Source: Capitulum mitella
Lineage: Eukaryota > Arthropoda > Thecostraca > Pollicipedomorpha > Pollicipedidae
Assembly (NCBI GenBank): GCA_030062745.1
Contig: CP099846.1
Coordinates: forward strand, 5,456,001-5,520,000
Direction: 5' to 3'
DNA: 64,000 bases
The notes below the pieces were generated by a model. The model was not told the origin of the DNA. It saw nothing but the letters and a program-made list of their open reading frames with translations, and searched no databases. The position numbers and the translations under genes are program-made. Below, piece by piece: positions 12,119-56,099 of this stretch (positions within the stretch are counted from its first letter, which is position 1; every line of letters begins with the position of its first letter).

Positions 12119-12157
12119 AAAAGCGTGCTTCCAAGTCGTGGGGATTCTGTTCTGTGT

Positions 12158-21766: not shown

Positions 21767-22705
21767 TTAACCCTATTCCCGGCGGGGGGCTGAATCCGCC
21801 CCCTCGGGTTTTTTGCTTGCCGATTCCAGGCTTTTTAACACAGCGTCACGAACTTTGGTGACTTTTCCTAATTATTCTTTCTACATGCTGTGACAACATT
21901 TCAAAATTTCGTTTTGCTCAGGGACGCAGCCAGGCAACGTTTTTGGGAGGCACTTCGTGCCATTTTTGGCCATGTTGAGGGTAAAAGAAAAATGTCTGCC
22001 AAAAACAGCGTTTTTAAGATAGAACTCAAAACTTTATATGAATGTATAGCTAAATAGTTGGGCAATGTGTAGATATAATGTTGTTCATCTGAGGTCACTT
22101 CACAAGGTCAGATCAAGATCAAATATCAAAATTTGGTTTTATTGCAATAATTTCGGCGCTGTTTTTTTTTTTAATGCCAAACCCGGAATATGTATGACGT
22201 AGAAAGGTGCCCTGTACTTGTGTATCACGTTTCAGCTTGATATTAGGTCGCGTCATGGAGCTACGATCTAAAATGTCAGTGCGCGTACCCTATATCGCAA
22301 TAGCCATAAAATGGAGTTTTTGAAATGGAGTGAATTCAAATGATTGGAAACGTTTACAGATAATATTAAATGCACACGAGATCATTCCAAGTGACTCCAA
22401 AGTCATTTAAGGTCATTTAAGGTCAAAGGTCACAAGTTGATCTGAAGAACTTGACAGTTCCCCTTTTTCATGTCCCTGACATCGCCTATGCTAACGTTAT
22501 GCAAACATTGTAATGCGATTTGTACTTCTTTAGCATAACATGTTCAAAAAGTCCAAGTCCAAAAATACCCCTAATTTTTACTTTTTTCCCCAATATCCGC
22601 CTTTTTTCAAAATTTTGAAAATTTCTTTTTGTAAAAATGTAGTTCACATCATGGCAAATCGATTGCCGTTGCTTGCGATGAAATCGGACTAATAGTTCTC
22701 GAGAT
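21767..22705 (+). mobile_element. TTAA-flanked MITE, lacking its right terminus
   Basis: It begins TTAACCCTATTCCCGGCGGGG and follows the full-length copies through the GGTCAAAGGTCA direct repeat (22430-22442) to the GATGAAATCGGA..AGTTCTCGAGAT block. The last 80 bp, including the right inverted repeat, are missing and replaced by repeat Z at about 22724. Confidence 0.85.
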
Positions 22706-23934: not shown

Positions 23935-24054
23935 AACAATAGCTAGGAAAAGTGCCCAAGTTTCGTGAAGCTCCCTTAAAAAGGCTGGAACTGGGAAGCA
24001 AAAAACCGGAGGGAGGGGCGGATTCAGCCCCCACCCTGCCGGGAATAGGGTTAA
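23935..24054 (-). mobile_element. MITE left terminus in reverse orientation (end fragment)
   Basis: CAAGTTTCGTGAAGCTCCC ... CCTGCCGGGAATAGGGTTAA is the reverse complement of the MITE left end. It abuts the TTAA at 24051-24054, which is shared with the following MITE right-half fragment. Confidence 0.8.
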
Positions 24055-24615
24055 GGTCAAAGGTCAAAAATTGATCTGAAGAACGTGTGACCGTGACAGT
24101 TTCCCCTTTTCCATGTCCCTGGCACCGCCTATACTAACATTATACAAACATTGTGATGCGATTTGTACTTCTTTAGCATAACATGACTAGCAGAAGCCAA
24201 AAAAGTGTTTTGCCTCTTTTGTTCATTCATTTGTTAGAAAACCAATCCTCCTTTTTTTGAAACTCTGTGATGAACGCTGATGAATTTTCTCAGAATTTGA
24301 GATTTGTGTACGCATGGTAAAAGCCGCATCCATAATCTTTCGAATCAGGCCATTGTCATTGAAAGCGGTCTATAAACAACGGAGTTATAAGAAGTCCAAA
24401 AATACCCCTGATTTTGACATTTTTGCCCTCCTGTGTCCACACATTTCAAAATTTTGAAAATTTCTTTTTATAAAAATGTAGTTCACGTCATGGCAAATCG
24501 ACTGCCGTTTGTTGCGATGAAATCGGATGTGTAGTTCTTGGGATTTCAGGGGGCGTGAGTCCGCCGCCCTGCCGGGAATCGGCCATACCGTCTAGCCCTC
24601 CGGGAATAGGGTTAA
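24054..24615 (+). mobile_element. MITE right half, ending in the TTAA terminus
   Basis: It starts exactly at AAGGTCAAAGGTCA (the point where intact copies also have an internal TTAA) and runs to GGAATCGGCCATACCGTC and CCGGGAATAGGGTTAA. The left half is replaced by the reversed end fragment, so this is the product of a nested or rearranged insertion. Confidence 0.8.
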
Positions 24616-30149: not shown

Positions 30150-33100
30150 AGCCGCCGACAGTGAACTAATTTCTTGAATGCAGAGATTCGCCGCCTCGCC
30201 ACGATATTGCAGACGCATCGCACGCACATTTCACCATTTATTGCGTTGAAGACCACACAAGCTACTGTACTCAATACATCAGCGCCGTTTCATCTAAATC
30301 GTAAAATATATTCCCGCTTGGAAAACAGCACAGAGACTAACACCACACCGAAAAGGCATTACTGAATTAAGCGAGCAAACACCTGTGTGAAGACCTGTGA
30401 ACCTGTGAAGCCCACACTAGCCACGCCAGGCACTGTGCCCTCCAGAACAGCTAAGACAGGCGCCAGCTGACGTGGTTAGTCTGGAGTTTTTCATTTCCTT
30501 CAGGCACCATTCATTATAAAACAACAATAGCAGGCGACTAACAGCAAAAACATTATGACAAGCACCGCTTCGCTCAGACCAGCCGCTTCGCATCCCGCTC
30601 AGCTCAATGGCTAATCCACACAGAGCTCCTGTCAGCTACGGTTTGCGCTGCCCAGCTCACACGATGGGCTCATAACACGCCGCCCAGCTCCGTACAGTGT
30701 TCATGGGCGCTGCCCAGCGCCGTTCAGCCGAACAGGGCGCTGTCCAGGTCTATGCAGCCGGACTGGGTGCTGCCCACCTCCATACAGCCATACTCGGCGC
30801 CGCCCAGCTCCGAACAGCGTAAACGGGAGCTGTCCAGCTCGATACAGTCGTTCCAGGCGCTGTTCAGCTCGATACAGCCATGCCGGGCGCTGCCCAGCTC
30901 CATACAGCCGTAATGGACGCTGCTCAGCTCCGTACAGCGTTCAAGGGGGCTGCCCAGCTTCGTATAACCGTAATGGGAGCTACCCGGTCCCAAACAGTTG
31001 TACCGGATGCTGCCCAGCTCAGTACAGCCTACTGTGCTACTGCTACTGGGCGCTGCCCAGCTCCGTGCAGCCTCACCGGGCGCTGCCTAGCTCAGAACAG
31101 CCGTACTGGGAATTGCCCAGCTCGCATCCACATCGGAGAATGTCCGGTTCAAACCAGCCACGCCAAACGCCTTCGTAACGGGCGTTCTTCTGAGAGGCCA
31201 CTCACCCACTTCTTGAAGCCCACTAGGCCCCAGAGAAGATGGCCAAAGACCTACCGTCGAAGGTCATTGAGGTTGGCACGCCACAGAACTGAAAGACCTG
31301 CATGAAGACGGCGGCGAGCGAGCGAGCGAGCAGCACTTCGACGATGGTGTGCACGATGGCTACCAGGCCGGCCTCCTCCAGTCGGCAGGCTCGAGTCATG
31401 CAGAGGTACCCCAAGAGAACGCAGACTGCCAGACTCAGTTCGCTCGCGGTACCAAAAGACGGTGATGGCACGCCGGAAACAGGTGATGACTTTCATGGAG
31501 AGCTGCCGTCATGCTTGGAGTTAGAATACCAATGAAACGAATCGTGGCCAACTTCGAGGGTCATATTGGTCCGGACGTTTTAGCAGTAGCGATCAGAAAG
31601 AGTAAAACGCTGCCGATCTGAATGCAAATGGAATTCCACGGCGAGCTATACGGAACTTCAAATTTCCAATGCTGCAGATCGCGCGTTTGGCGTGCCGGCT
31701 ACAACCCCATTGACTTCGTCATCCTGGCGACCGTGGCAGTTGTTTCGTTGGCCGGAGACTCCGGGGGGCGTTATTGCGTTTTCCAGTGAGGTCATCCTCT
31801 AATCTCAAACCTGAAAGACGACATGTTGATAAATGCCTACTGCTTGTGCGACATGCGACCACGAAGCACCGCCGATTACAATTATCCTCGCGACAGTACT
31901 AACAGAAAAAGAACACGGCAACGGAAAAAAAACATCACATGAACCAGTGGATGTGATCTGTGTTTGGGAAACGATTCGTCTTTTGATTAAGCACTGAAAA
32001 ATAAATTCGTTTTTAGTTGATCAATTATCTAACGAGGTCCCAAATCTGAGCGGATGCAAAATTGGTTTTAAACGAAATTGTTCATGAACGAATAGTGGCA
32101 TAGATTCCAGCTTATTTTTGACAGGAAGAACTGATTTTGGGTGAAAATGAAAAAACGGTTCGAAGGACGGCTCAGTGCAAAAACTGCCCAATCCCACGAG
32201 GCGAAAAGATTACGTGGACCTTTCCGAAATGCTTATCCTTCAGCGTTTACTCGAGGCCTACGCGCCAGCGCATACCTACAACCCTAACTCATCCTCACAT
32301 CTAATGTGCTGGTGACGACCACCCGCAAACCGAGCAGTCGGCCGCTTCTTCCCAGCAGTCACGTGCTGTTCCAGCAGACACTTGGATGATGTGCAGTGAC
32401 GGAGTGAGCCATTTTCCAACGTCTGACACTGGTGAACACCAGTGGTGCGACGTGCCAGCTGCGGCGTTCCTTGGGTTGGGGTCACCTGTCAGAAGCAGGA
32501 CTTCCTGAGAAACTGATCCCAGCCGCCTTCCGTGTCCTGCTTTTCTACCCTTCCAACAGATGAAGAGGAATGTCCTCAGGCAGCGCCAGGTAACGAATAA
32601 CTCGGCTTTCAGTATGCGGAAGACTGCAGTACAGGGGAAATTATCGACGACCCATCAGACGACATCTCGCGACCGATCATCTCGGCATCTGTTCCACCTC
32701 TCCTGGATTCCGGCAAACAATGCAAAACACGCCACCCCCGGGACATCGCTCATCGGAAAATCACGGCCAGCCATCTCCCGCCTGTCTAGATGACACCGCA
32801 CAAGCCAGAAACGCTGGTGTTGTGTCCCAGTTTAAACAGCGAACGTATGCACTTAGCATGCTGGTGAAGATGTACTACTCTATTTCATCGTCGGCAGTAT
32901 GCCGGAGTTCACAGCCAGCTGAAGCAAACTGAATTCGACGAAGCAAGGTAGGCGAAAAGCAACAAAGGCGCAAACCAAACCAAAATATCTAGCAACAAAT
33001 ATGTCGGCACTCCGAATCCAAAAGAAAACAGAAAATCATCTCTGAAGCCCACCACCGGTTTGTCAATGAACCGCTTCATCATACGGCAGAGGTGTGCTGG

Positions 33101-33370
33101 TTGAAGCCAGCAAGGCTTGTGTGAACCAGTGAGCCAAAAAAGATCACAAAAAAGGGAATATTGTCCAAAGACGAAGGCAAACGCAACAAAAACGAGACCA
33201 CATCGTAACAACAAAGCGGCTACCCAGCAATGCAGGGCAAGCTGGAGTGAGGCTATCATTTCAGAAAGGCCGCACATAACCCGACAGTTACTGGGAGCAT
33301 TTCGTAACACGATTTACGGGGGGGACATTCCTCCCTCTGTCCTTGCAACCAATAAACCGATTGCGTGAAT
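30150..33370 (+). repeat. Complex interspersed repeat R, copy 1
   Basis: Blocks at 30170-30470, 31105-31560, 31690-31810, 32230-32660 and 32815-33130 match, in the same order, blocks at 40900-41200, 41480-41900, 42060-42200, 42640-42935 and 45160-45500. Shared strings include GCCACGCCAAACGCCT, CTGCCGTCATGCTTGG and CAGTATGCGGAAGA. No open frame is conserved between copies, so I treat it as a non-coding repeat. A hydrophobic minus frame (33310-32909) has a loosely similar counterpart at 45.3-45.5 kb but is broken there. Confidence 0.7.
30670..31110. repeat. Minisatellite, 30-bp unit (GGGCGCTGCCCAGCTCCATA + CAGCCGTAAT), about 14 units
   Basis: CTGCCCAGCTC..(T)ACAGCC recurs every 30 bp. Because 30 is divisible by three, it encodes a 10-residue repeat of the type GAAQLHTAVM on the plus strand and a second repeat on the minus strand. 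The same unit recurs at 41285-41480 and, inverted, at about 42945-43035. It lies within repeat R and is probably non-coding. Confidence 0.85.
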
Positions 33371-37781: not shown

Positions 37782-37888
37782 CCTCTAAGAGCTTAAGTCG
37801 TTTCATCCAAACTTTTTTCAAATATACCTCAAACTAGCCAGATATTTTCAGCTACGATTGCATTCAGTTTGGTATCAAAGCCAAGGAA

Positions 37889-39104
37889 TTAACCTTATTT
37901 CCGGAGGGCTACACGATACGACCGATTCCCGGCAGGGAGAGGGGAGGGCGGATTCGGCCGCCCTGAGATCTCGAGAACTACTCATCCGATTTAATCGCAA
38001 CAAACGGCAATCGATTTGCCATGACATAAACTACAGTTAAAAAAAAAATAACTTCAGAATTTTGAAAGGGGTTGATAATGTGGCTAAAATATCAAAATGG
38101 GGCATACTTTTGAACTTCTTATAACTCTGTTGTTTATGGACCGATTTCGATGAAATTGGCATGAATCGAGAGATTATGGATATGACTTTTGCCACTGGTG
38201 CACATATTTGACGTGCTGAGAAAATTCATGGATGTACACAGGGTTTGGAAAATATTAGGATTAGTTTTTCAAAACCTGCATCAAGAAAAAAGGTAAAAGC
38301 AATTTTTTGGCTTCTGCTAGTCATGATATTCTAAACGAGTGCAAATAGTATTGCGGTGTTTGTATGATGTTATTATAGACGGTGCCAGGGACATGCAAAA
38401 TTGGAACTGTCATGGTCACATGCTCTTCAGATCAACTTATGACCTTTGACCTTAAATGGCCTCCAGTGACCTTGGGGTCACTCTGAATGATCTCGTGTGC
38501 ATTGTGTATTATCTGAAAACGTTTTCGACCATTTGAATCCACTCTGTTTCAAAAATTCCGCTTCACGGCTATTGTGATAAAGGGTACGCGCACTGACATT
38601 TTAGGTCATGGCTGCGTGACCCGACCTGATATCAAACTGAAACTTGGTAGAAAGGTAGATGTTAACCTCCTACGTCATATATATTCCGAGTTTGGCATTT
38701 TAAAAAATCACCGAAATTATTCCTACAGAAACAAATTTTGACTTTTGACCTAGGCCTGACCTTGTAAAGTGACCTCAGACAAACAAAATTGTATTTGCAT
38801 GTTGTCCAACTATTTAGCTATACATGCATATAAAGTTTTAAGTTCTATCTTAAAAGCGCCATTTTTGGCAGTCATTTTCCTCTTACCCTCAAAAAGGCCA
38901 AAAAAAGTCTTAGGTGCCTCACAAAAATGTTGCCTGGCTCCGCCCCTGAGCAGAAGAGAATTTCGAAATTCTGTCACAATGCGTAGAAAAAATAACTAAG
39001 AAAAATCACCATGTTTTTTGAAGCTGCGTAAAAAGCCTGTAATTGGCAAGCACAAAACCCGAGGGGCGCGCAAATTCAGCCCCCCACTGCCCGGAATAGG
39101 GTGA
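37889..39104 (-). mobile_element. TTAA-flanked MITE, full-length, reverse orientation
   Basis: It runs from TTAACCTTATTTCCGGAGGG (the right terminus reversed) to CCCGGAATAGGGTGAA (the left terminus reversed, with TTAA changed to TGAA). It contains every internal block of the full copies, including TGACCTTTGACCT (38440-38452). At about 1216 bp it is the most diverged full copy. Confidence 0.85.
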
Positions 39105-39109
39105 AGGCA

Positions 39110-42939: not shown

Positions 42940-43375
42940 TCGGTAAATCTCGGTACAGCTATACGGAGCTGAGCAGGGTCCGGAGAGACTGCGCGGCGCT
43001 GGACAGCACCCGTTGATGCTGTGTGGAGCTGGGGAGCGCGTTGTGAACTGGTCACCTCCTGGCATATGTTCGGCGCGTGACGTTGCTGTTCCGAGCAGAG
43101 CGGTGCTTGTTATCACGTCTGTATGCTGTGCCTTGTTGTAGCTAACAGGAGATCTGTGTGGATTAGCTATTGAGCTGAGCGGGATGCGACGCGGCCCGTC
43201 CGAGCAGAGCGGTGCTTGTCATCACGTTTGTGCTGTTAGGCGCCTGCCAGCTGGCAGAAGCTCTGTATTAGCTATTGAGCTGAGCGGCATGCGACGCGGC
43301 CCGTTCATACAGAATGGTGTACTGGAACAGCAGCCTCGGAAGGAGGCTCATTATGCGTCAGACGCAATGTAACTG
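42940..43375 (-). repeat. Inverted fragments of repeat R
   Basis: CAGCTATACGGAGCTGAGC ... and TAGCTATTGAGCTGAGCGGGATGCGACGCGG are reverse complements of R copy 1 at about 30555-30640, plus its 30-bp minisatellite. The GAGCTGAGCGG.ATGCGACGCGG string occurs twice here. Confidence 0.65.
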
Positions 43376-43599
43376 CGGACATTAGGGCGAAAAGAAAAAA
43401 GCACATGTTCTCGAGCAGATATCAAGACGTTTAATATTTCCTACTTAGTTACAACTATGGCGCATTTGCGATAGTTGCCGCGCACTGTGTTGGCGATTAC
43501 GTATTGGCTAATGTTGGCTAATATATATGATGGCTAATGGATATAAATGCTGGCATAGGGATTAACTTCCGTGCGTAAATGCATTGTCACATTAAAATT

Positions 43600-45113
43600 T
43601 AATGCAGTGGGGTGCAGTTGAAAGGATTTATTCTGTGAAGGTAATTTAAATCGAAGTATGTTAAACAACTTCCTGGATTGTGCATTTCTGTGCTAATATT
43701 GGGCAGAGAGTGGAAAAGGCAGGGTTTGGGGGATTGGGGCCTGTACAGTGGCGACGGCGATTTTGTGAACGATAGGAATGCAAAGGTAACCAAACATGCT
43801 GTGTGCTGAAAGTGCCTTACAGAGGTAGCTTCTGTGCACAATATCTACATCTTGTCAACAAATATCTGCAAATGTCAGCAAAACGCAAGCAATGGGAATA
43901 AACACCCAGGGGCGTCAAGAATGCAAAGTGTACACGATGACGAGAAAAGGAAAAACGAGACGACCGGGAGCACGCAAAATGGTACATAAGTAATGGGGTT
44001 CTATGTCCATTATATGCAGCATTTAAACGTCCGATGGGGACAACCAAAAAACATAGTAGTGCTGTCTGGCTGCTGTTGATTCTCCCCGGCGGAGAGCTGT
44101 AGCGGGCGCTCAGTGGCCGTCTGCCCCGCTGCCGTCAGGGATCAACCGTAGGACAGTGTTGTGATCACAGTCCGGGAGCGCCACAGCCGCAAGAACAAAC
44201 CGAAGATCAAGCGGGCCATGGTGGCTTGGCCGAAACGCAGAGATCAATTCGGGAAGTACAGACCCGCTGGCTGTGTAGTGCAGTCGGTGACCCCAGTCCA
44301 TGTCCATGATTTGAAATATAAAGAAAATATCAATGCGCATGTGAATGCGCAAAGCCGTTATACATCACATTCCAGAAATGCCTCAAGGCAACGACACCGA
44401 AATAGTAAGCACAGGGGAAGGCAAAGCAACCTACTAGGAAAATCTTGTAATCCAAACCGTAATCCAGTAAGGCAAACGGAGGACAGGGGGCTGTTGTAAT
44501 CATGCAGTGCCTGTGGTAGCTGGCGCCTGTTGGGTGGCGTGGTGTGAGCTGGACAACGTGTGTGAGCTGGGCATCACCTGTTGTGGCTGGCAGGAGCTCG
44601 GTGTTAATTAACTATTAAGCTGAGCGCGATGAGAGGAGTCTCCTCCGGAGCGGTGCCTGTCATCACGTTTGTGCTGTTAGTCGCCTGCTGTAGCTGGCAG
44701 GAGCTCTGTGTAAATTAACTATTGAGCTGAGCGCGATGAGAGGAGTCTCCTCCGGAGCGGTGCCTGTCATCACGTTTGTGCTGTTAGTCGCCTGCAGTAG
44801 CTGGCAGGAGCTCTGTGTAAATTAACTATTGAGCTGAGCGCGATGAGAGGAGTCTCCTCCGGAGCGGTGCCCGTCATCACTTTTGTGCTGTTAGTCGCCT
44901 GCCGTAGCTGGCAGGAGCTCGGTGCAAATTAACTATTGAGCTGAGCGGCATGCGACGCGGCCCGTTCAAACCGAGCGGTGCTTGCCATTACGTCTGTATA
45001 CTGTGCAGCGTCTGCCTTGGCTGCTGTGAGACAGACTGTATGTTATGGATGGATAAACCGGAGTAGCCCTCCATACCAGGTTTTCTAGTTTTCTTTGCCC
45101 GCGTAATGCAGTT
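43600..45113. repeat. Repeat S, copy 1
   Basis: Positions 43890-44520 and 44950-45113 are closely similar to 48930-49560 and 49800-50012. Shared sequence includes TGTTGATTCTCCCCGGCGGAGAGCTGTAGCGGG and GGGAAGTACAGACCCGCT. Several frames are open in one copy but not in the other, so coding is unlikely. Confidence 0.75.
44585..45010. repeat. Tandem array, 107-bp unit, about 4 units
   Basis: CTGGCAGGAGCTC begins units at 44587, 44694, 44801 and 44908, an exact 107-bp period. Each unit contains TTAACTATT.AGCTGAGCG, CTCCTCCGGAGCGGTGCC and GTTTGTGCTGTTAGTCGCCTGC. The internal CTCCTCCGGAG is a short palindrome. One unit also stands alone in S copy 2 at about 49556-49665. Confidence 0.9.
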
Positions 45114-45159: not shown

Positions 45160-45890
45160 TATCTTCATTCCAGTTGAAACAGCGAACGTGTTCACTCAGC
45201 ACGCTGAGACACGAACACACTCAGCATGCTGAAAATGCTCTACTTTGCCTCAGTCCGGAGTATGCTAGAGTTCACAACCAGCAACAGAAATATATAGACG
45301 AAGGAAGGCGGAGAAAAAGCAACAATGGCGTAAACCAGACCAGAATATTTGCAACCAGTGCGTCGGGACACCGGATCCAGAAGTAGAAAAACTGCTCTGG
45401 AGCCCATTAACGGTTCGCCAGTGGACCACCCTATCATACAGCAAATCTGCTGGTTGAAAACACTGTTGCACAGGAAAACGCAATAATGCCTTCAGATTCC
45501 TCCGCAAACGAAGACACTACCAGGATCGCCCCAAGGATGGCCCATGCGGCTTACGTTAATCGATGAACAAGTTGACTACGGAAGCGCAAGATTTCGCAAA
45601 GACGGATACGCATGACTGACTCTCTCAAAAACAAGTCATGTGCATTGGTCTATTCGATTTATTTTCCGTGTTACTCGCCATGTTATTTTCAGTTTTTGCT
45701 GTGCAGATACTTATAGTCGTCAAGGCCTCGTGGCCGAACGTTGGACTGAGTTATGCATTCTGCCAACATCTGTGTTCAGACTGAGATCTAAGGATGACCG
45801 CTGCACTGGAAAACGCAATATCGCCTTCAGATTCTTCCGCAAACGAAGAGACTACCAGGATCGCCACAAGGATAACTCACGGGCCGGCGC
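45160..45890. repeat. R-tail segment and adjoining 333-bp spaced duplication
   Basis: Positions 45160-45500 match R copy 1 at 32820-33130 and the segment at 51232-51400. GGAAAACGCAATA.(T/C)GCCTTCAGATTC(C/T)TCCGC occurs at 45474 and 45807. The TTCA at 45164-45167 corresponds to the point where a MITE is inserted in the 50-kb paralogue. Confidence 0.7.
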
Positions 45891-46312: not shown

Positions 46313-46340
46313 TATAAATAAGACACTCTGTACCTGTCAG
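46313..46340 (+). promoter_or_regulatory. Putative core promoter: TATAAATA plus TCAG initiator
   Basis: TATAAATA starts at 46313, and TCAG lies at 46337-46340, which places the initiator A 26 bp from the TATA start. This is the canonical arthropod spacing. It precedes dual-coding copy 1 by about 315 bp. Transcription is inferred only. Confidence 0.5.
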
Positions 46341-46440: not shown

Positions 46441-46504
46441 GGTCAACGACTTTTGCGTCTCCCCTATACAGGGGTCGAGTGCACATTAGCAAAAGTCGTT
46501 GACC
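46441..46504. repeat. Branched hairpin: perfect 16-bp stem enclosing a small hairpin
   Basis: GGTCAACGACTTTTGC (46441-46456) pairs perfectly with GCAAAAGTCGTTGACC (46489-46504). The 32-nt interior contains CCCCTATACAGGGG, a 5-bp stem with a 4-nt loop. It lies between the putative promoter and the first start codon of copy 1, so it would sit in the 5' leader if that promoter is used. Confidence 0.9.
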
Positions 46505-46650: not shown

Positions 46651-47613
46651 AAAAATGGAGCCGATCACAACATACCAGTCACCGACAGAGCCCGTATTCC
46701 ATCCGACGGCGACCCACACCGTCATTCACCAGCGGACGTACCGGATTCACCTGCAAGTCCCCAGCAACATCGACGTCCTGGGACACATGGAGGACTGGAT
46801 CTCTCCGGCGGATTTGAACTTAGACATTTTGAGCTCTACACACCCTGCGATAACAGCGCACAAGATGTCTGCGACGAACGCGAGCGAAACATGCAGGATC
46901 GACGTCAACAACATATCGAACTTCACAACGCGGAAGCTATTAGGACAATGGATTCTCCACCTGCCAGCGAGGAACATCCTCGACACGGCGATCCTGTGGC
47001 ACTCCGGGAGTCTGACGGCCGAGAGGTATCATCCGAGGACGACGACCCATTTCTTGGAATACCTCTCGGCCAACTACTCCCGGAGGAGAAGGCTGTCAGA
47101 CGCCGTCGCGCCGGAGGAGCTGATGGCCGACATTCGCCAGCTTCGTTCCATCCAGAACTTCCAGTACGACCTGACCGATCCGGCAGCCCTGAGGCGGTGC
47201 CTGGTCCATCCGGAGCGCAGCCTTCCGCCGCCTGCAGCACCGGCCGCGACCAGGAGGAGGACGACACCTACTTCTCACCGGCCGAGCACAGCGGCCAACA
47301 GATCGTCTACTTCCTCCCGCAGTTCTCCGACGCTGCCGATGATGACGACCCACTGAATCAGCAACCCATTGGACAGAAATGGGTATTGTGCATTGCCACG
47401 AAACGGTCTTTTGGTATTCGTTTCACACGCATTCACAGAGTGGGTTTTATCCACCAGTCAGTACATCAACAAATAAAACACGGCGAACAGTCAGGCAAAG
47501 AAGTAAAACCACAGTCACGGTATAAAAAACAAAAGGATGATCCAGGAGCACAGGACACAGCACTCAGCCGTCGTCTCACCACACCGGTTTTGGTAGCTCC
47601 AAACAAGAGCTGA
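46651..47613 (+). CDS. Dual-coding locus copy 1, frame B protein
   Basis: Frame B is open from just after a TGA at 46648 through to 47613. The first in-frame ATG is only at 46891, and the similarity to copy 3 frame B begins well before it (PHRHSPADV, QQHRRPG, RRQQHIELHNAEAIRT). The true start is therefore probably supplied by an upstream exon or a non-AUG codon. Further on it has EVSSEDDDPFLGIPLGQLL (near-identical in copy 2), a PGPSGA motif also found in copies 2 and 3, and YFLPQFSDA matched by FFSQFSHADN in copy 2. Similarity ends near 47370, and the remaining codons to 47613 are probably chance. The protein is acidic and Ser/Pro-rich. Its function is unknown. Confidence 0.5.
   Translation, partial: KNGADHNIPVTDRARIPSDGDPHRHSPADVPDSPASPQQHRRPGTHGGLDLSGGFELRHFELYTPCDNSAQDVCDERERNMQDRRQQHIELHNAEAIRTMDSPPASEEHPRHGDPVALRESDGREVSSEDDDPFLGIPLGQLLPEEKAVRRRRAGGADGRHSPASFHPELPVRPDRSGSPEAVPGPSGAQPSAACSTGRDQEEDDTYFSPAEHSGQQIVYFLPQFSDAADDDDPLNQQPIGQKWVLCIATKRSFGIRFTRIHRVGFIHQSVHQQIKHGEQSGKEVKPQSRYKKQKDDPGAQDTALSRRLTTPVLVAPNKS
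46655..47356 (+). CDS. Dual-coding locus copy 1, frame A protein (233 aa)
   Basis: This frame is open from the ATG at 46655, chosen because MEPITTYQSP aligns with the copy 3 start MNNILTTYPVRP; the frame is also open back to an ATG at 46568. Landmarks are VIHQRTY near residue 25, VNNISNFTTRK near 90, LWHSGSLTAERYHPRTTTHF near 120, and ANYSRRRR. The first and last parts match copies 2 and 3. The C-terminus is Pro/Thr/Ser/Arg-rich. There is no signal peptide or membrane segment. I do not recognise the family. The whole frame overlaps frame B. It may be an accessory protein of an endogenous virus (compare densovirus NS2-like nested frames), but this is inference. It is free of stops here and in copy 3. 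Confidence 0.6.
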   Translation: MEPITTYQSPTEPVFHPTATHTVIHQRTYRIHLQVPSNIDVLGHMEDWISPADLNLDILSSTHPAITAHKMSATNASETCRIDVNNISNFTTRKLLGQWILHLPARNILDTAILWHSGSLTAERYHPRTTTHFLEYLSANYSRRRRLSDAVAPEELMADIRQLRSIQNFQYDLTDPAALRRCLVHPERSLPPPAAPAATRRRTTPTSHRPSTAANRSSTSSRSSPTLPMMTTH

Positions 47614-47619
47614 TCGGTA

Positions 47620-48900
47620 GGGGTGAAGTCGATGCTTGCTGGCTTTATCAAAACTGGTCCTTCAGGCTGTCAGATATGAACCAGACCTTGTACTTTGTAC
47701 CAGAGTTTCTGTGATCAATGCTGCCCAAATGTTTATCTTTGTACGTGTATGAAGGTAAATGTATCAACGATGAAATTCGAAATCACCGTCTCAAAATGCA
47801 CTAAAATATAACCAAACTGAAAAGAGTCACTCGAAGTCAGGTCAGTCAAGGCCCATGGCCTCAGAAAGGTTTCTAACCTATGTCATCTCAAATGAATAAC
47901 TTGCCAAAAAACCCAAACATCCATGACCACCAACTATTTTAACACTGCGTGAAACAAGGAAAACAAACGCAGATTGTCGAGAAGCCGGGCATGCTCCGTT
48001 GTGATAGTTATGTGGCCTGGCATGACCGTAAAGTCAATTTTTACCGAAGGTTGCGAAAGGTTGTCACATGAACTATGCGGAAAGGTTATCACAAGCTATG
48101 CGAGTATAAGCGAAATCGCGCCATTCAGCGACCAGATCCGAAAAAAAAACGTTTGGGTGGTCAGGGAATCCGCAAGCCGCGGATAGCGGCGCGGCCTTTC
48201 TGGATACTTTCAAGCATAAAATTACGCAGCAATTTTTTTCCGATTCGGAGAGGCCGTGTTTCACATTGCAGCATATCTTTATCTGCCTTCCAAAGATCGG
48301 ACAACGGTTGTATTGCAATGCGTTGTATTATATTAGTATTACACTTACTGTTTCCCACTTCGGGCGCGCCTCGCCATGTTTCGGAGGCGCAGTCTGCTAA
48401 CTTCCAAATCGAAAATAGTCATTTTTGTTGTCAGAGACTGACCAGACCAGACCTATGAGTTATTCACAAAGTTGTAAATAGATTAGATTCCGATTCACAG
48501 CTGTAAAGTTGATCGATTCTGATTCTTATTCACGAGCAGAGTTGGCAGATAGGAACATATTATGATCAGATTCTGAATCGGTCACAAGCTTCGACCAGAC
48601 GTAGCTCAACAGTTGGAAGATACGTTAATCTACAATGATCAGAATTCCCAGGATACCAGCATCGCATGTCTCGAAAAGGAGATCAGTGATTATGCTGCGT
48701 ACTTTTTACCAGGTTCAGCGTCATAATGAAGCAGTTGTGCACTAGGAGCGCGATGACAGATGGCCGCTTCTGTTCCCCAATCGCCGGTCCAACAGAGTTG
48801 GCCTGGTGAAGACGCAAAATGTTGTGTATTTTATAACATGCTTGGCGGTAGCTGTGTCTCCAACATCAACGAAAGAAATACCGCCCGTTGACAATACAGC
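47620..48900. other. Spacer; no gene recognised
   Basis: A 127-codon plus frame at 48075-48458 and its overlaps lack motifs. No repeat recognised elsewhere in the window extends through here. Confidence 0.4.
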
Positions 48901-50012
48901 CCAATCATCAAAGTCCGCAAACCCAAGCAAGGGAGAAACACTCAGGAATATCACGAATGCGAAGTGTACAAGATGGCGAAGATAAAAGGGAAAACCACAG
49001 ACTACCGGGACGACGCAAAATGGTAAACTGGTGGTGGGTGGCGATATTCCTTATATGCAGCGCTTAAGCGCACGACGAAGAAAACCAATGAAGACAGTCG
49101 TGTCTGGTTGCTGTTGATTCTCCCCGGCGGAGAGCTGTAGCGGGTGCTCAGTGGCCGTCTGCCCCGCTGCCGTCAGGGATCAAGCGTAGGACAGAGTCTG
49201 ATCACAGTCCGGGAGCGTCACAGCCGCAGTAACAAAGCAAAGATCAAGTGGGCCGTGACGGCTTGGCAGACACGCAAAGAGATCAGTTCGGGAAGTACAG
49301 ACCCGCTAGCTGTGTGGTGCAGTCAGGCAGTCGCCCCAGGCATGTCCATGGTTTGAAATATATGAAGGAAATATCAACGCTCATATGAATGCGCAATGAG
49401 AATGGTGGGAAGCCATTAAACATAGGTATTCAAGAAATGACGCAAGGTCACGAAACCAAAATAGTAAGCACAGAGGAAGGCAAAGCAACCAAACTATGAA
49501 AACCTTATAATCCAAACTGCAATACAGTGAAGCAAAGGAAGACAGTGGGCTGTTGTAGCTGGCAGGAGCTGGGTGTAAATTAACTATTGAGCTGAGCGGG
49601 ATGAGAGGCGGCTCGGTCGGAGCGGTGCCTGTCATCACGTTTGTGCTGTTAGTCGCCTCCTGTTGTTGTTTGATCATGAATGGTGCATGGAAAAAATGGA
49701 AAGTGTTTGTGCAGATTAGCTATTGAGCTTGTGCTTGTCATCACGTTTGTACTGTTAGGCGCGTGCCGTAGCTGTCAGCTCTGTATTAGTTATTGAGCTG
49801 AGCGGCATGCGACGCGGCCCATTTGAGCAGAGCGGTGCATGCCATTACGTCTGTATGCTGTGCAGCGTTTGCCTTGGCTGCTCTGAGACGGACTGTATGT
49901 TATGGATGGATAAACTGGAGTAGCCCTCCACACCAGGTCTTGTTTTATTTGCCAGCGTAATGCAGTTACGTCTTTTCGGAGTGGTCATAGTCTGTGCTGC
50001 TAGAATGCTATC
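48900..50012. repeat. Repeat S, copy 2
   Basis: It is collinear with S copy 1 but has only one clear 107-bp unit (about 49556-49665) plus degenerate ones. It ends at GAATGCTATC, immediately before the TTAA of a full MITE. Confidence 0.75.
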
Positions 50013-51231
50013 TTAACCCTATTCCCGGCAGGGGGGGGGGGGCGGAATCCGCCCCCCTCGGGTTTTTTGCTTGCCAATTCCAGGATTTTTGACGCAGCTT
50101 CACGAAACTTGGTCACTTTTCCTAGCTATTCTTTCTACGTGCCGTGACGAAATTTCGAAATTCTATTTTGCTCAGGGGCGGAGCCAGGCAACTTTTTGGG
50201 AGGCACCTCAGGTCATTTTTAGCCATGTTGAGGGTAAAAGGAAAATGTCTGCCAAAAACACAGTTTTTAAGATAGAACTTAAAACTTTATATGAATATAT
50301 AGCTAAATAGTTGGGCAATGTGCATATGTAATTTTGTTTATCTGAGGTCACTTTACAAGGTCAGGTCAAGGTCAAAAGTCAAAATTTGTTTTTTCGCAAT
50401 AATTTCGGCGCCGTTTTTTTCAAATGTCAAACCCGGAATATATATGACGTAGAAAGATGCCCTCTACTTGTGTACCAAGTTTCAGCTTGATATCAGGTCA
50501 GGTCACGGAGCTATGACCTAAAATGTCAGTGCACGTACCCTATATCGCAAAAGCCAAAAAATGAATTTTTTGGAATCGAGTGAATTTAATCGATTAAAAA
50601 CGTTTACAGATAATATTGAATGCACACGACATCATTCCAGGTGACCCCAAGGTCACTGGAGGTCATTTAAGGTCAAAGGTCACAAGTTGATCTGAGAAAC
50701 GTGTGACCATGACAGTTCCCCCTTTTTTATGTCCCTGGCACCGCCTATGCTAACATTATACAAACATTGTAATGCGATTTGTACTTCTTTAGCATAACAT
50801 GACTAGCAGAAGCTAAAAAAGTGTTTTGGCCTCTTTTGTTCATTCCGTTATTGGAAAACTAATCCCCCTATTTTTGAAACCCTGTGAGCGCCCATGAATT
50901 TTCTCAAAATTTCAAATTTGCATACCCATGGTAAAAGCCCTATCCATAATCTCTCGATTGATGCCAGTTTCATCGAAATCGGTCCATAAACAACGGAGTT
51001 ATAAGAAGTCAAAAAGTACCCCCCATTTTGACATTTTTGCCCTCCTGTATCCACAAATTTCAAAATTTTGAAAATTTCTTTTTATCAAAATGTAGTTCAC
51101 GTCACGGCAAATCGATTGCCGTTTGTTGCGATGAAATCGGATAAGTAGTTCTCGAGATCTCAGGGGGGGCCGAATCCGCCCCCCCTGCCGGGAATCGGCC
51201 ATACCGTCTAGCCCTCCGGGAATAGGGTTAA
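50013..51231 (+). mobile_element. Full-length TTAA-flanked MITE (piggyBac-like ends)
   Basis: It runs from TTAACCCTATTCCCGGCAGG to CCTCCGGGAATAGGGTTAA, 1219 bp including both TTAA. The outer 16 bases are a perfect inverted repeat. Both ends also carry a second internal CCGGGAAT/ATTCCCGG motif and a G-run/C-run hairpin (GGGCGGAATCCGCCC). There is no long frame, so it is non-autonomous. A TTAA target and CCC-starting ends are hallmarks of the piggyBac superfamily. The paralogous empty site at 45164 supports TTAA as the target duplication. It contains AGGTCAAAGGTCA at 50670-50682. Confidence 0.85.
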
Positions 51232-51400
51232 TCCCAGTTGAAACAGCGAACGTGTTCAAACGTACGAACGCTCTTAGCATGTTGAAGATGCCCTGCTGTG
51301 CCTCAGACAGCAATATGCTAGAGTTTACAACCAGCAGCGGAAATATATATAATACACGAAGGAAGGCGAACAAAAAGCAAGACTGGATTCGACGTAAACA
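51232..51400 (+). repeat. R-tail segment following the MITE
   Basis: CCCAGTTGAAACAGCGAACGTGTTCA ... to AAAAAGCAA matches 45170-45325. Similarity then changes to the dual-coding family at about 51385-51400. Confidence 0.75.
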
Positions 51401-52582
51401 ATTCCAGCAACTATACGACGAAGAAGCAATTCGCGCAGTTTGTTCTCCACCTGACAGCGAAACATAACAGACGTGGCCCTGACCTGGTACTCCGGCAACC
51501 TGAGCACGGAGACGTATCATCCGAAGACGACGACCCATTTCATGACATTCCTCTCGGGCAACTACTCCAAGAGGAACGTTCTCCCACCAGCCCTACCATC
51601 GGCAGTGGCGCTCTCCGACATCAGAGACCTGCATCCTCTCCAGTCATTCCAATACAACCTCCAAAATCCAACAGCCCTTCGGCTATCGCAGGCCCATCCC
51701 GAGCGATCCCTGCCATCATCGACCTAAACACCGAGGACGACGCCAACACACTGTGGCCATCACAGAGACCTCCATCCAGACAGCACCAGGAGCGCTACAG
51801 AGTTTTTCTCACAGTTCTCCCACGCCGACAACGAACCGATGGATCCGAACGATGCACCAGCAGCAGCCGCCGGCGACGCCGGCGCCCCCACCGACGACAG
51901 CCTCCGAAACGCACCCTATCTAGTCACCATGGTCTTCCCGAGAGACCTCCGTGGACGGATCAGAGGCAACAAATGGACAGGCGTTATCACCTGGCACCCT
52001 GGCTGCGCTCGAGGACATACTTTAAACCGTGAACTATACCATGGACCCAACGGACATACACATGTCACCATCCCCGACACGGGGAAGAACAAATCAAGAG
52101 CCATCACAAACCCCTGCAGACTCCTCGGGCTCGGCCAGGATGCAAGAGGTCAGTGCTAACTTACATTTCAGTGCATTAGAAATGTTACGCGCTGGGTGGG
52201 GTATCTCGCAAGGTTTGGCTTATCCAAGATGGAGGTTCATAATATACCCCACCCAGCGGTAGCAATCATCAAGGCAATCATGACAAAGATCAGCAACCTG
52301 TTCGTCGGTTGCTGTGCCCGTGAAGATGACACAACCGACGGCGCAACAGAAGCAGACACCCTCTACGACCTGCCTGGCAGCTGCCTGCCCAACGACGAGG
52401 TGGACGCCAACCACACGTCAGCAGAAAACGCCAGAAACAGAAGCCAAGAGCAGCGTCAACAAAACCAACAACAGCAACGCGGCAGAAAACGACGACACGA
52501 CGAAATCGACCAACAAGAACCGGACTACATCCGAAGCCAAGTCAAGAAATACGACAGCCGCACAGTAGGAGACGATTCATGA
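51390..52582 (+). pseudogene. Dual-coding locus copy 2, frameshifted (both frames)
   Basis: Frame A is visible as VNNSSNYTTKK, FVLHLTAKHN and, after a frame change near 51460, TWYSGNLSTETYHPKTTTHF (stop at 51727). Frame B gives RRKQFQQLYDEEAIRA, then (same shift) VSSEDDDPFHDIPLGQLL and, after a second shift near 51795, FFSQFSHADNEPMDPNDAP and WTGVITWHPG. The first indel moves both frames together. Frame B meets a TAA at 52157-52159 and then stays open to 52582 with WVGYLARFGLSKMEV and a Gln/Arg-rich segment containing RGRKRRHDE, a likely nuclear localisation signal. GHTHVTI (HxH) and a later Tyr could recall a nickase, but copy 3 does not keep the HxH. Its 5' end is joined to repeat R. Confidence 0.6.
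52144..52171 (+). promoter_or_regulatory. Splice-like signals crowded in 23 nt (donor, branch point, acceptor)
   Basis: GAG|GTCAGT at 52146-52154 is followed by TGCTAAC (branch-point consensus, 52154-52160) and TTACATTTCAG ending at 52171. The copy 3 exon ends at an equivalent CAG|GTCAGG. Twenty-three bases is too short for a normal animal intron, so either longer flanking sites are used or this is the scar of a shortened intron. Confidence 0.4.
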
Positions 52583-52619
52583 ACACCATCAGCGACCATT
52601 AATTAACCACCCTATACAG

Positions 52620-52868
52620 TTGACACCAAACTTCAAAGAGCGAGTCAAGGTGATCATACAGTTGGAAAATAATCAACGGAACAAGACCCTGAAGAAGACT
52701 CCGTTCTGGAAAACCTACGAGCAACACTTCTCGTCAACCGCCGACAAGTCTCTCTCTCCCCAGCCGAGCGAAAGCAATAGACTAGATTTACCCGAGCGGC
52801 CTGGCGTGGTCTCTTACCCGCGACGGCCTGGGGATGTTCAAAAGGGCACCTGTTACTTCAGGATCTAG
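52620..52868 (+). CDS. Unrecognised 82-codon open frame downstream of copy 2
   Basis: It reads KERVKVIIQLENNQRNKTLKK near the start, then KTPFWKTYEQHF. The composition looks protein-like in the first half. The listed start is TTG, so it may be the continuation of a broken larger gene or a chance frame. No paralogue follows copies 1 or 3, and no helicase P-loop was found anywhere nearby. Confidence 0.25.
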   Translation: MTPNFKERVKVIIQLENNQRNKTLKKTPFWKTYEQHFSSTADKSLSPQPSESNRLDLPERPGVVSYPRRPGDVQKGTCYFRI

Positions 52869-53139
52869 TCTCAGACCGGTTCAGATTGTTCATGAATCTA
52901 CCATCAATCGATCACCGAGAGTCTTGCGATTTGTTGGTCATGCTTTCTGGCCCTATTTACTTTGTTGGCCATGGCCACCTGACTGATGTCGCAGATCACG
53001 TAGAACTAATAACACGTCAAAAAAAACTGATGCAGGTTCGTACATCATGGGCAATAATGGCACTAGCCTTCAGCTGAGTATCATACCAAACGTCACCATC
53101 TTCTGCATCAGCAGGATGTCCTAATGTGCAAAATGCAAA

Positions 53140-53321
53140 ATGTCAAGGTCAAGCTCGGTCAGAAAAAATGTCCTTTACCTGCCAATCTTACTTGACCAGC
53201 CAAAGATCGATAACTACTCGCAGCCGCTGCGAGAAACGTTACAAGTACTGAATTGGAACCTTCTGATAAGCAGTTTTGCATTGCTTACTTTGCATGCAGT
53301 CAGTCATTTTGGCCAGGTCAG
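53140..53321 (+). CDS. Putative upstream coding exon of dual-coding copy 3
   Basis: The ATG at 53140 opens a frame (start MSRSSSVRKN) that reaches CAG|GTAAGT, a perfect donor, at 53319-53327. Removing 53322-53595 (274 nt) brings this frame into phase with frame A of the next exon. The exon-1 frame that would join frame B is open only from about 53214 and has no ATG. The sequence is hydrophobic toward its end and unrecognised. The exon is inferred from splice signals and phase only. Confidence 0.4.
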
Positions 53322-53595
53322 GTAAGTTTGCATTACTCTTTCTGAAAGGTATTCTGAGCCGCGTCAAAGTGCCCCGCTAGCTGATTGGATGAAACTTTTT
53401 TGCTGATGAAAAGAGTGCGGATAACGCGGAGCAGTTTCAGTCCTGTTCCGTACTCTGTGAAGGTGTGACTTCTCTTCGAGACTACCCTACTTCCACTATG
53501 CAAGTAAGTGATATACACGTCTACTAGAAACACAATATTAATACTTATTCAAGTAAAAAATATCACTTTCTAATACACGTTTATATCACTTACAG

Positions 53596-54513
53596 AATGA
53601 ACAACATCCTGACAACGTACCCAGTCAGACCGACATCACCAATTCATCACCCCATCGGAGGCCACATACTCCATCAGAGATCATACGTGTTTCAACTCAA
53701 CCAGAGGAGCACCGAGAACCTGTTGTCGCAACTACGGTCTTGGGCCCAGAGTACTTCTCAGATGACGCCGGAACTTCTTCATCAGAAGAGTCCCTCGGTT
53801 TCGATGCGCAAGTTTCACGGTTTGAGAAACATCTCATACGTGTTGAGCGTCAACAACGTAACCAACTTCAATTGGCGAAAGACGTTTGCGACGTTCCTGA
53901 CAACCCTACCGAACGCGACGATCCTCCAAATGGGGATCAAATGGTACAGCGGAGTACTATCGACAGAGACGTATATCCCGACGAAATCCCAGGACCTTCA
54001 AACCTTGATGCTGGGCAACTTCGCCGCCAGACGGAAGATGAGGATAGCCCCCCCGTCATCATCCGTAGAAGAGGCCCTAAGTCGTCCAGCTCCGTTCGAA
54101 GTGGAAATACCACTTCCTCCAGACCACCCTCCGTCCCCGGTAGCCCCATCCCCTCAGACTCCTCCATCCCCTGTGGACAGCCGAACCAGGACAGAGGCCG
54201 CACGATCACAGGTCTCGAAACGGCGGAGGACGTCTTACGCCTCTACCACTCAGACCAGCGCAACACAGACGGAGAGCCCGCTCTCGCGACCTTCGTCCTC
54301 CCCGGTGATTACCGAGAGGCCCTCAGAAACACAAAAACCAAGTGGAACGGAATCGCGACATGGCACCCCGACCGACTCAACCATGGACCACATATTCGAA
54401 CAAGCACCGTTGACGGAGCTGGACCATCAGGAGCTGGAACAAATAATCCAAAGGCTCATTCTAGACCTGCGTCAAGCCAGGTCAGGAGAAATAGTCATTT
54501 TCTTTTTTTCTGA
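53596..54513 (+). CDS. Dual-coding locus copy 3, frame B protein
   Basis: It is open from 53557 (after a TAA at 53554) through the acceptor to 54513. Between acceptor and donor (53596-54480, 885 nt) there are exactly 295 codons. No ATG occurs before DQMVQ, deep in the frame, so initiation must come from another exon or a non-AUG codon. It contains SDDAGTSSSEES, VERQQRNQLQL, VYPDEIPGPSNLDAGQLRR and LPGDYREALRNTKTKWNGI followed by ATWHPDR. The last part matches WTGVITWHPG in copy 2. It is acidic and Ser/Pro-rich with a folded-looking C-terminal 70 residues. The family is not recognised. Confidence 0.5.
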   Translation, partial: NEQHPDNVPSQTDITNSSPHRRPHTPSEIIRVSTQPEEHREPVVATTVLGPEYFSDDAGTSSSEESLGFDAQVSRFEKHLIRVERQQRNQLQLAKDVCDVPDNPTERDDPPNGDQMVQRSTIDRDVYPDEIPGPSNLDAGQLRRQTEDEDSPPVIIRRRGPKSSSSVRSGNTTSSRPPSVPGSPIPSDSSIPCGQPNQDRGRTITGLETAEDVLRLYHSDQRNTDGEPALATFVLPGDYREALRNTKTKWNGIATWHPDRLNHGPHIRTSTVDGAGPSGAGTNNPKAHSRPASSQVRRNSHFLFF

Positions 54514-54550
54514 CAAGGAAAAAAACTGTTCTGCTGCTCTGAGTGCTTAA
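53597..54550 (+). CDS. Dual-coding locus copy 3, frame A protein
   Basis: The ATG at 53597 lies one base after a splice acceptor (TTTATATCACTTACAG, ending 53595). The frame is open for 317 codons, but the probable exon end is the donor after 54480, so about 294 codons are exonic. Landmarks are HILHQRSYVFQLN near 25-37, VNNVTNFNWRKTF near 85, IKWYSGVLSTETY near 115, and a long Pro/Ser/Thr-rich segment. The C-terminal helix TMDHIFEQAPLTELDHQELE is acidic and leucine-rich. It aligns with copies 1 and 2. It has no recognisable enzyme motif. It overlaps frame B completely. Confidence 0.6.
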   Translation: MNNILTTYPVRPTSPIHHPIGGHILHQRSYVFQLNQRSTENLLSQLRSWAQSTSQMTPELLHQKSPSVSMRKFHGLRNISYVLSVNNVTNFNWRKTFATFLTTLPNATILQMGIKWYSGVLSTETYIPTKSQDLQTLMLGNFAARRKMRIAPPSSSVEEALSRPAPFEVEIPLPPDHPPSPVAPSPQTPPSPVDSRTRTEAARSQVSKRRRTSYASTTQTSATQTESPLSRPSSSPVITERPSETQKPSGTESRHGTPTDSTMDHIFEQAPLTELDHQELEQIIQRLILDLRQARSGEIVIFFFSDKEKNCSAALSA

Positions 54551-54867: not shown

Positions 54868-56092
54868 TTAACCCTATTCCCGGCAGAGGGGGGGGGGGGC
54901 GGAATCCGCCCCCACTCGGGTTTTTTGCTTGCCAATTCTAGGCTTTTTGACGCAGCTTCACGAAACTTGGTCACTTTTCCTAGCTATTCCTTCTACGCGC
55001 CATGACGAAATTTCGAAATTCTATTTTGCTCAGGGGCGGAGCCAGGCAACGTTTTTGGGAGGCACCTCAGGTCATTTTTGGCCATGTTGAGGGTAAAAGG
55101 AAAATGTCTGCCAAAAACACAGTTTTTAAGATAGAACTTAAAACTTTATATGAATGTATAGCTAAATAGTTGGGCAATGTACATATGTAATTTTGTTTAT
55201 CTGAGGTCACTTTACAAGGTCAGGTCAAGGTCAAAAGTCAAAATTTATTTTTTCGCAATAATTTCGGCGCCGTTTTTTCAAATGCCAAACCCGGAATATA
55301 TATGACGTAGAAAGATGCCCTCTACTTGTGTACCAAGTTTCAGCTTGATATCAGGTCAGGTCACGGAGCTATGACCTAAAATGTCAGTGCACGTACCCTA
55401 TATCGCAAAAGCCAAAAAATGAATTTTTTGGAATAGAGTGAATTTAATCGATTAAAAACGCTTACAGATAATACTGAATGCACACGACATCATTCCAGGT
55501 GACCCCAAGGTCACTGGAGGTCATTTAAGGTCAAAGGTCACAAGTTGATCTGAGAAACGTGTGACCATGACAGTTCCCCCTTTTTTATGTCCCTGGCACC
55601 GCCTATGCTAACATTATACAAACATTGTAATGCGATTTGTACTTCTTTAGCATAACATGACTAGCAGAAGCTAAAAAAGTGTTTTGGCCTCTTTTGTTCA
55701 TTCCGTTATTGGAAAACTAATCCCCCTATTTTTGAAACCCTGTGAACGCCCATGAATTTTCTCAAAATTTCAAATTTGCATACCCATGGTAAAAGCCCTA
55801 TCCATTATCTCTCGATTCATGCCAGTTTCATCGAAATCGGTCCATAAACAACGGAGTTATAAGAAGTCCAAAAGTACCCCCATTTTGACATTTTTGCCCC
55901 CTGTATCCACAAATTTCAAAATTTTGAAAATTTCTTTTTATCAAAATGTAGTTCACGTCACGGCAAATCGATTGCCGTTTGTTGCGATGAAATCGGATGA
56001 GTAGTTCTCGAGATCTCAGGGGGGGGCCGAATCCGCCCCCCCCCCCTGCCGGGAATCGGCCATACCGTCTAGCCCTCCGGGAATAGGGTTAA
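54868..56092 (+). mobile_element. Full-length TTAA-flanked MITE (piggyBac-like ends)
   Basis: It runs from TTAACCCTATTCCCGGCAGA to CTCCGGGAATAGGGTTAA, 1225 bp with both TTAA. It is nearly identical to the copy at 50013-51231 along its entire length, differing mainly in G/C homopolymer lengths, so the two are recent. It contains AGGTCAAAGGTCA at 55528-55540. A short frame at 55786-56004 is part of the repeat, not a gene. Confidence 0.9.
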
Positions 56093-56099
56093 TGCTGAC

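What the first reader, a model, noticed from the sequence alone, without database searches (positions are those of the whole stretch)
46651..54513. Three-member gene family that appears to encode two proteins in overlapping frames
At 46.65-47.37, 51.39-52.15 and 53.60-54.48 kb the same DNA is open in two plus-strand frames, and the amino-acid similarity between copies is visible in BOTH frames. Frame A: VNNISNFTTRK / VNNSSNYTTKK / VNNVTNFNWRK and LWHSGSL / TWYSGNL / KWYSGVL. Frame B: RRQQHIELHNAEAI / RRKQFQQLYDEEAI / VERQQRNQLQL and EVSSEDDDPF / DVSSEDDDPF, with GPS motifs in all three. Copies 1 and 3 have diverged strongly yet remain open in both frames. Chance open frames would not share substitutions compatible with both proteins. 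I recognise neither protein. Overlapping accessory frames are typical of small viruses; densovirus/parvovirus NS regions have this layout, so endogenous viral DNA is the leading idea.
Basis: partly seen in the sequence, partly recalled or inferred. Interest (0 to 1): 0.88.

Follow-up and report, generated by a model that had tools for sequence, protein, structure and literature searches.

The report
Parvovirus relics with two overlapping genes
An animal-type genome carries three old fragments of a small DNA virus in which one stretch of DNA encodes two proteins at once; this kind of viral fossil is known, but these are unusually divergent and two of them keep both reading frames.

Summary
Copies 1 and 3 are open in two plus-strand frames over 699 and 914 nt; copy 2 is 5'-truncated and frameshifted. 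With the frame A protein fixed, 0 of 2000 synonymous shuffles cleared frame B of stops in either copy. A conditional permutation finds excess conservation in B between copies 1 and 2b (P 0-0.0035) but not in the third frame.

No sequence search placed the proteins; structure did. AlphaFold models of frame A from copies 3 and 1 share a ferredoxin-like topology. Among viral models their top four matches are the same four parvoviral proteins, three named NS2 (E 6e-7 to 1.3e-4). Frame B then fits the NS1 N-terminus: NS2 lies in its +1 frame, as in densoviruses, and copy 2 has a near-HuH motif close to the position in whitefly densovirus NS1. No SF3 helicase was found.

Best reading: endogenous parvoviral NS1/NS2 fragments, a new member of a known kind. 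Oddities: a predicted 92-nt hairpin intron between copy 3's two start codons, and hairpins beside the other copies. The own-genome search was unreachable (12 of 12 tries).

The parts
46655..47356 (+). Copy 1, frame A: NS2-like ORF (233 aa from ATG 46655)
   Evidence: AlphaFold model and viral fold search
46651..47350 (+). Copy 1, frame B: NS1 N-terminus-like frame; no ATG opens it here (nearest upstream ATG 46647 is in the third frame); open to 47610 but homology ends near 47350
46313..46320 (+). TATA-like box TATAAATA upstream of copy 1, with an initiator-like TCAGAAT about 25 nt downstream (read by eye)
   Evidence: inference
46441..46504 (.). Perfect 16-bp hairpin, 32-nt loop, upstream of copy 1
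51388..51462 (+). Copy 2, first piece (frame A 51388-51462, frame B 51390-51461); 5'-truncated
51455..51727 (+). Copy 2, second piece of frame A (after a register shift)
51454..51816 (+). Copy 2, second piece of frame B as aligned; clear homology to copy 1 ends near 51714
51728..52159 (+). Copy 2, third piece of frame B: NS1-like start of the nuclease region (K-W-x-G...TWHP...HGP...), conserved with copy 3
52052..52066 (+). Near-HuH motif G-H-T-H-V in frame B of copy 2
   Evidence: position compared with BtaDV HuH 256-258 (PMC12297876)
52190..52258 (.). Perfect 15-bp hairpin, 39-nt loop, just after copy 2
53498..53503 (+). Predicted short coding end of exon 1 of copy 3 (start codon for frame B plus one codon)
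   Evidence: inference
53504..53595 (+). Predicted 92-nt intron GTAAGT...TTACAG of copy 3, with 27-nt inverted arms (53504-53530 and 53567-53593)
53597..54550 (+). Copy 3, frame A: NS2-like ORF (317 aa from ATG 53597; the last residues are probably flank)
53596..54513 (+). Copy 3, frame B: NS1 N-terminus-like frame after the predicted splice

Best explanation
The three copies are germline-integrated fragments of the non-structural gene unit of a parvovirus that no sequence search used here could place. Frame A is NS2, a nested protein with a ferredoxin-like domain and a low-complexity tail. Frame B is the polar, acidic N-terminal part of NS1 up to the start of its HuH nickase domain; the rest of NS1 (SF3 helicase) was not found in the window. 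In the virus the two proteins would be read from one mRNA: ribosomes start at the NS1 AUG or scan past it to the NS2 AUG in the +1 frame. In copy 3 a predicted 92-nt GT-AG intron would bring the two AUGs 7 nt apart. Shown: two open, co-conserved frames; structural match of A to parvoviral NS2; +1 frame relation. Inferred: B as NS1, the splice, leaky scanning, germline integration. Whether any copy works in the host is unknown; copy 2 is broken and copy 1 has no ATG that opens frame B.
For: Dual constraint. Fold of A from copy 3 against BFVD: IHHNV NS2 B4YSS3 6.2e-7, IHHNV NS2 H6U730 1.1e-6, Parvoviridae sp. A0A7D3V1I0 1.4e-5, Ambidensovirus NS2 A0A2P1G6B1 1.3e-4, then 1.1e-3. From copy 1: the same four at 1.3e-6 to 1.4e-5, then 7.2e-3. 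Layout: A is +1 to B; published start positions give NS2 at +1 to NS1 in GmDNV (N4 spacing) and AdMADV (N19) (PMC3820778) and in BtaDV (AUGs 437 and 636; PMC12297876). Copy 3 after the predicted splice has the N4 spacing. Near-HuH: the HGP of copy 3 (residue 264) aligns with the HGP just before HTH in copy 2; BtaDV has HuH at 256-258. Frame A lengths 233 and 317 aa against 332 (BtaDV), 363 (IHHNV) and about 294 (sea star viruses, 883 nt). Precedent: whitefly genome with the 5' half of an NS1/NS2 unit (PMC12297876).
Against: No sequence-level match: Pfam, PHROGs, 5.8 billion proteins, IMG/VR, PDB sequences (one chance-level match each, E 0.52 and 1.6). Both models are of moderate confidence (mean pLDDT 55.7 and 54.1; 51-79 and 47-85 per ten-residue block over residues 31-140); TM-scores of the four matches are 0.27-0.44 and rmsd 4.4-29.9, as the floppy tails are aligned too. 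The fold is a common one, and for copy 3 no PDB match reaches E 0.001. No Walker A motif near the copies, no capsid gene recognised, no YuxK seen. The HuH is HTH, seen in one copy. The two fold searches are not independent, since both models rest on the same three sequences.
Confidence: 0.85

Rival explanations
1. A single-coding gene family: frame A is the only protein, and frame B is its translation shadow kept open by base composition.
For: Aligned on frame A, A scores above B in all four comparisons; aligned on B, copy 1 v 3 favours B (190 v 62), so alignment choice matters. In the copy 1 v 3 alignment made on A, an antisense frame scores higher (70) than B (26). In the conditional test copy 1 v 3 and 2b v 3 give only P 0.006-0.155.
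Against: B has 0 stops where 5.9-6.5 are expected, 0 of 2000 shuffles in each copy. Selection on A alone gives the observed B similarity of copy 1 v 2b in 0 of 300 simulations for each of three strengths and both directions. The conditional permutation gives P 0-0.0035 for B in that pair against 0.59-0.79 for the third frame. A frame B region beyond the part shared with copy 1 is conserved between copies 2 and 3.
Confidence: 0.05
2. A domesticated host gene pair of parvoviral origin that still encodes both proteins, with splicing in copy 3 deciding which start is used.
For: Both frames open in two diverged copies; canonical GT-AG intron exactly between two starts; published precedent of a spliced, transcribed NS1/NS2 5'-half integrant (PMC12297876).
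Against: Copy 2 is frameshifted; copy 1 has no ATG that opens B; copy 3 ends in apparent flank. No expression or orthologue data.
Confidence: 0.12
3. Another small virus or element with a nested gene (bidnavirus, CRESS virus, unknown transposon).
For: A CRESS Rep protein appears weakly in the copy 1 fold list (E 1.2e-2, rank 7). PMC11768917 (passages) says NS2 occurs in all invertebrate ssDNA viruses, bidnaviruses among them.
Against: The top four matches in both searches are parvoviral, and rank 5 is roughly 8 times and 500 times weaker in E than rank 4.
Confidence: 0.06

Closest known systems
[quoted passage not shown]
   Same: Best structural matches of frame A in both searches; NS2 of similar length.
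   Different: Only 12-18% identity; no sequence search used here detects the link; not sorted to a subfamily.
Ambisense densovirus NS cassette (GmDNV, AdMADV, BtaDV)
   Same: NS2 in the +1 frame of NS1; N4 spacing of starts in GmDNV as in copy 3 after the predicted splice; HuH near residue 256 in BtaDV; leaky scanning proposed.
   Different: In GmDNV and AdMADV the splice acceptor lies just before the NS1 AUG; in copy 3 the predicted intron lies between the two AUGs. No NS3, VP or ITR recognised here.
Whitefly (Bemisia tabaci) integrated 5' half of the BtaDV NS1/NS2 unit
   Same: Fragment covering both starts and the overlap, lacking the helicase; GT-AG intron.
   Different: That locus is transcribed and fused to a host domain, with its donor inside the NS1 sequence; here expression is untested and three diverged copies lie within 8 kb.
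Sea star densovirus EVEs
   Same: Fragmentary NS1 relics in host DNA.
   Different: Those keep the Walker/SF3 part and lack RCR motifs (PMC7737747); these keep the opposite end, as many whitefly EVEs do (PMC12297876).

Membership tests
Parvoviral NS2 (invertebrate) | Fold like known parvoviral NS2 | tested here: met
   Top four of BFVD in two searches, three named NS2
Parvoviral NS2 (invertebrate) | Reading frame nested in the NS1 N-terminal region | tested here: met
   Two overlapping constrained frames; +1 as in GmDNV, AdMADV, BtaDV. That the partner is NS1 is itself inferred
Parvoviral NS2 (invertebrate) | Sequence similarity to known NS2 | tested here: inconclusive
   No hits; whether the collections hold invertebrate parvoviruses is unclear (one search found none with one capsid motif). 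Foldseek identity 12-18%
Parvoviral NS1 | HuH and YuxK nickase motifs | tested here: inconclusive
   Near-HuH HTH in copy 2 only; no YuxK seen, and the copies end soon after the HuH position
Parvoviral NS1 | SF3 helicase with Walker A | tested here: not met
   No credible GxxxxGK[ST] in six frames of the window (one hit at 32740 beside stops). The copies are fragments, so the loci are not filed as complete NS1 genes
Parvovirus genome | Capsid gene | tested here: inconclusive
   None of the 30 Pfam inputs matched a capsid family; not every ORF was tested
Parvovirus genome | Terminal palindromic hairpins | tested here: inconclusive
   Hairpins lie beside all three copies, but not at demonstrable ends
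Endogenous viral element | Embedded in host chromosomal DNA | tested here: met
   LINE ORFs and dispersed repeats on both sides within one 64-kb window; host not named; misassembly not tested

The most novel reading that the evidence does not exclude
Copy 3 is a working host gene: a former viral NS1/NS2 overlap captured as a bicistronic gene, in which a newly gained hairpin intron sits between the two start codons so that splicing decides whether the frame B or the frame A protein is made. NS2, with its globular ferredoxin-like domain, would be the older protein, and the disordered NS1 N-terminus the one overprinted on it.
Probability: 0.12. Interest if true: 0.75.

Novelty: new member of a known kind. 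Interest (0 to 1): 0.45.

Why it matters
[quoted passage not shown] These copies give diverged sequences with a predicted ferredoxin-like fold, so its core (the W-x-S-G-x-L-x-x-E-x-Y-x-P block of frame A) can be named and tested. They also show that parvoviral relics can be missed by sequence searches and found by fold, and they add a case, after the whitefly, of relics that keep the NS1/NS2-overlap end and not the helicase end.
Full report
What is there. The window is eukaryotic, most likely animal, DNA: it holds LINE-type endonuclease and RNase H reading frames on the minus strand and dispersed repeats. At 46.65-47.35, 51.39-52.16 and 53.60-54.51 kb lie three related stretches on the plus strand. 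In copies 1 and 3 two frames are open together: frame A (46655-47353, 53597-54547) and frame B (46651-47610, 53557-54510). Frame A is frame B plus one. Copy 2 lacks its 5' part and is out of register at about 51455-51462 in both frames and again in B before about 51800. tblastn with nine queries from these stretches found no credible fourth copy; the other hits at E<=1 are weak (0.45-0.55) or belong to flanking repeats and the copy 2 hairpin. DNA homology spans 46876-47226 with 51362-51714 (66%) and 46903-47176 with 53848-54125 (60%).

Is it more than chance. Three tests. (1) Synonymous shuffles, 2000 each: with A fixed, B has 0 stops against means of 5.9 (copy 1) and 6.5 (copy 3 to 54454), reached by none; the other frame (+1 of A) has 11 and 16 stops, about as many as shuffles (8.9 and 14.1). 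With B fixed, A is stop-free in 4.5% and 1.2% of shuffles. (2) Forward simulation to the observed number of differences, 300 runs per setting: selection on A alone reproduced the B similarity of copy 1 v 2b in 0 of 300 at each of three strengths and in both directions, and left no stop in B in 1-6% of runs. For 1 v 2a the similarity was reached in 0-2%, for the copy 1 v 3 core in 0.7-4.3%, for 2b v 3 in 1.7-10.7%. The simulation is crude: settings with selection on both frames also fell short of the observed A similarity in most comparisons. (3) Because uneven rates can mimic this, a conditional permutation kept the frame A proteins and either the positions or the number of changes per codon, 2000 draws: for B of copy 1 v 2b P = 0.0030, 0.0035, 0.0000 and 0.0025; for 1 v 2a 0.03-0.10; for 1 v 3 0.006-0.128; for 2b v 3 0.04-0.155. 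The third frame as control gave 0.05-0.96, one of 16 values below 0.05. So both frames are constrained, and most of the power comes from copies 1 and 2. Aligned on A, A scores above B in all four comparisons; aligned on B, copy 1 v 3 favours B.

What the proteins are. No family or sequence search placed them. A is ordinary in hydrophobic content (0.37-0.39 over the first 180 residues); B is polar and acidic (0.22-0.24; D+E 0.17-0.18). AlphaFold models of A from copy 3 and copy 1, each on the three-sequence alignment, share one topology: strand, helix, two strands, helix, two strands, helices. Confidence is moderate (ten-residue means 51-79 and 47-85 over residues 31-140; much of the tails below 50). 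Foldseek against BFVD returned 4 matches at E<=0.001 in each search, and they are the same four proteins: two IHHNV NS2, one Ambidensovirus NS2 and one unnamed Parvoviridae protein; the fifth is at 1.1e-3 and 7.2e-3. Identity is 12-18%, TM-scores 0.27-0.44, and the rmsd of the full-length alignments is large where tails are included. Against the PDB there is only the common ferredoxin-like arrangement. I take A as a parvoviral NS2 relative.

Frame B as NS1. This is inference from A, supported by published layout and one motif. NS2 is mostly contained in the NS1 frame in invertebrate ssDNA viruses (PMC11768917, passages). The +1 relation equals that computed from published starts of GmDNV and AdMADV (PMC3820778, whole text) and BtaDV (PMC12297876, passages). 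Frame B of copies 2 and 3 is conserved up to a W-x-G, TWHP and HGP block (20 invariant of 61 columns), and copy 2 has G-H-T-H-V right after HGP; HGP is residue 264 in copy 3, where BtaDV NS1 has HuH at 256-258. The published NS1 of BtaDV is 719 aa with its helicase at 447-652, so the part seen here would be roughly its first third. Against: no YuxK seen, HTH is not a strict HuH, and no helicase in the window.

How it would work. In the virus NS1 and NS2 are thought to come from one mRNA by leaky scanning (PMC3820778; PMC12297876). Copy 3 shows a canonical donor GTAAGT at 53504 and acceptor TTACAG ending at 53595, 92 nt in all. Splicing this out would put an upstream ATG in frame B and leave the frame A ATG 7 nt after it, the N4 spacing reported for GmDNV. 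In copy 1 two ATGs lie 8 nt apart (46647 and 46655) with no such intron; the first is in the third frame, so no ATG opens B there. Frame A of copy 3 carries a basic K-R-R-R stretch at residue 208, which may be a nuclear signal as reported for other NS2 proteins (PMC11768917, passages). None of this was tested by expression.

Hairpins. The intron of copy 3 is itself a hairpin with 27-nt arms, 89% paired, and hairpins of 16 and 15 perfect pairs stand upstream of copy 1 and after copy 2. As single-stranded DNA each folds better than all 200 shuffles, z -5.3, -5.0 and -6.3. Of 11 hairpins of score 13 or more in the window, the three with score 15 or more and loops of 32-39 nt are these three; a further one of score 13 with a 29-nt loop lies inside copy 1 at 47017-47071. 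That grouping was made after seeing them. I cannot explain them: they are not at demonstrable virus ends, and only one has splice-site edges.

Known or new. Parvovirus-related sequences were reported in the genomes of 31 invertebrates in one survey (PMC5013282, passages), and sea star relics usually keep the helicase end (PMC7737747, passages). A very close precedent is the whitefly locus with the 5' half of an NS1/NS2 unit, transcribed and spliced; most whitefly relics encode the nickase part (PMC12297876, passages). So this is a new, very divergent member of a known kind. The listings of my paper searches did not turn up these copies or a host intron placed between NS1 and NS2 starts, but that library is partial. 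Subfamily cannot be told: the fold matches include both IHHNV (Hamaparvovirinae) and an Ambidensovirus.

Limits. The own genome could not be searched, so copy number, age and orthology are unknown. The two fold searches are not independent evidence, because both models use the same three sequences. No control model of an unrelated ferredoxin-like protein was run.

Noticed in passing
50013-51231 and 54868-56093: piggyBac-like non-autonomous elements: about 1.22 kb, TTAA + CCCTATTCCCGG inverted ends, 97.6% identical, flanking the segment with copies 2 and 3; diverged relatives at 37885-39106, 21767-22542, 16467-16902 and 24051-24615. The family name is recalled from the TTAA/CCC ends.
   Followed up: partly
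46441-46504, 52190-52258, 53504-53593: The only three window hairpins with score 15 or more and loops of 32-39 nt all lie beside the three copies (grouping made after the fact).
   Followed up: partly
7111-14605 (minus strand): LINE remnants: endonuclease domain at 13052-13684 (Exo_endo_phos_2 3.9e-10) and RNase H at 7451-8161 (1.3e-6).
   Followed up: no
52160-52868: Downstream of copy 2 several plus-strand frames are open at once, one with a basic R-G-R-K-R-R stretch; no Pfam match above cut-off; in the window one piece has a self-inverse match at the hairpin and a weak hit at 6537-6590.
   Followed up: partly
45164-45328, 51228-51386, 32850-33105: A dispersed repeat ends about where copy 2 begins (76% between the first two), so its insertion may have cut off the 5' part of copy 2.
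   Followed up: no
43098-44997 and 49544-49990: A cluster of about 107-nt tandem-like repeats shared between the two regions (75-95% identity).
   Followed up: no
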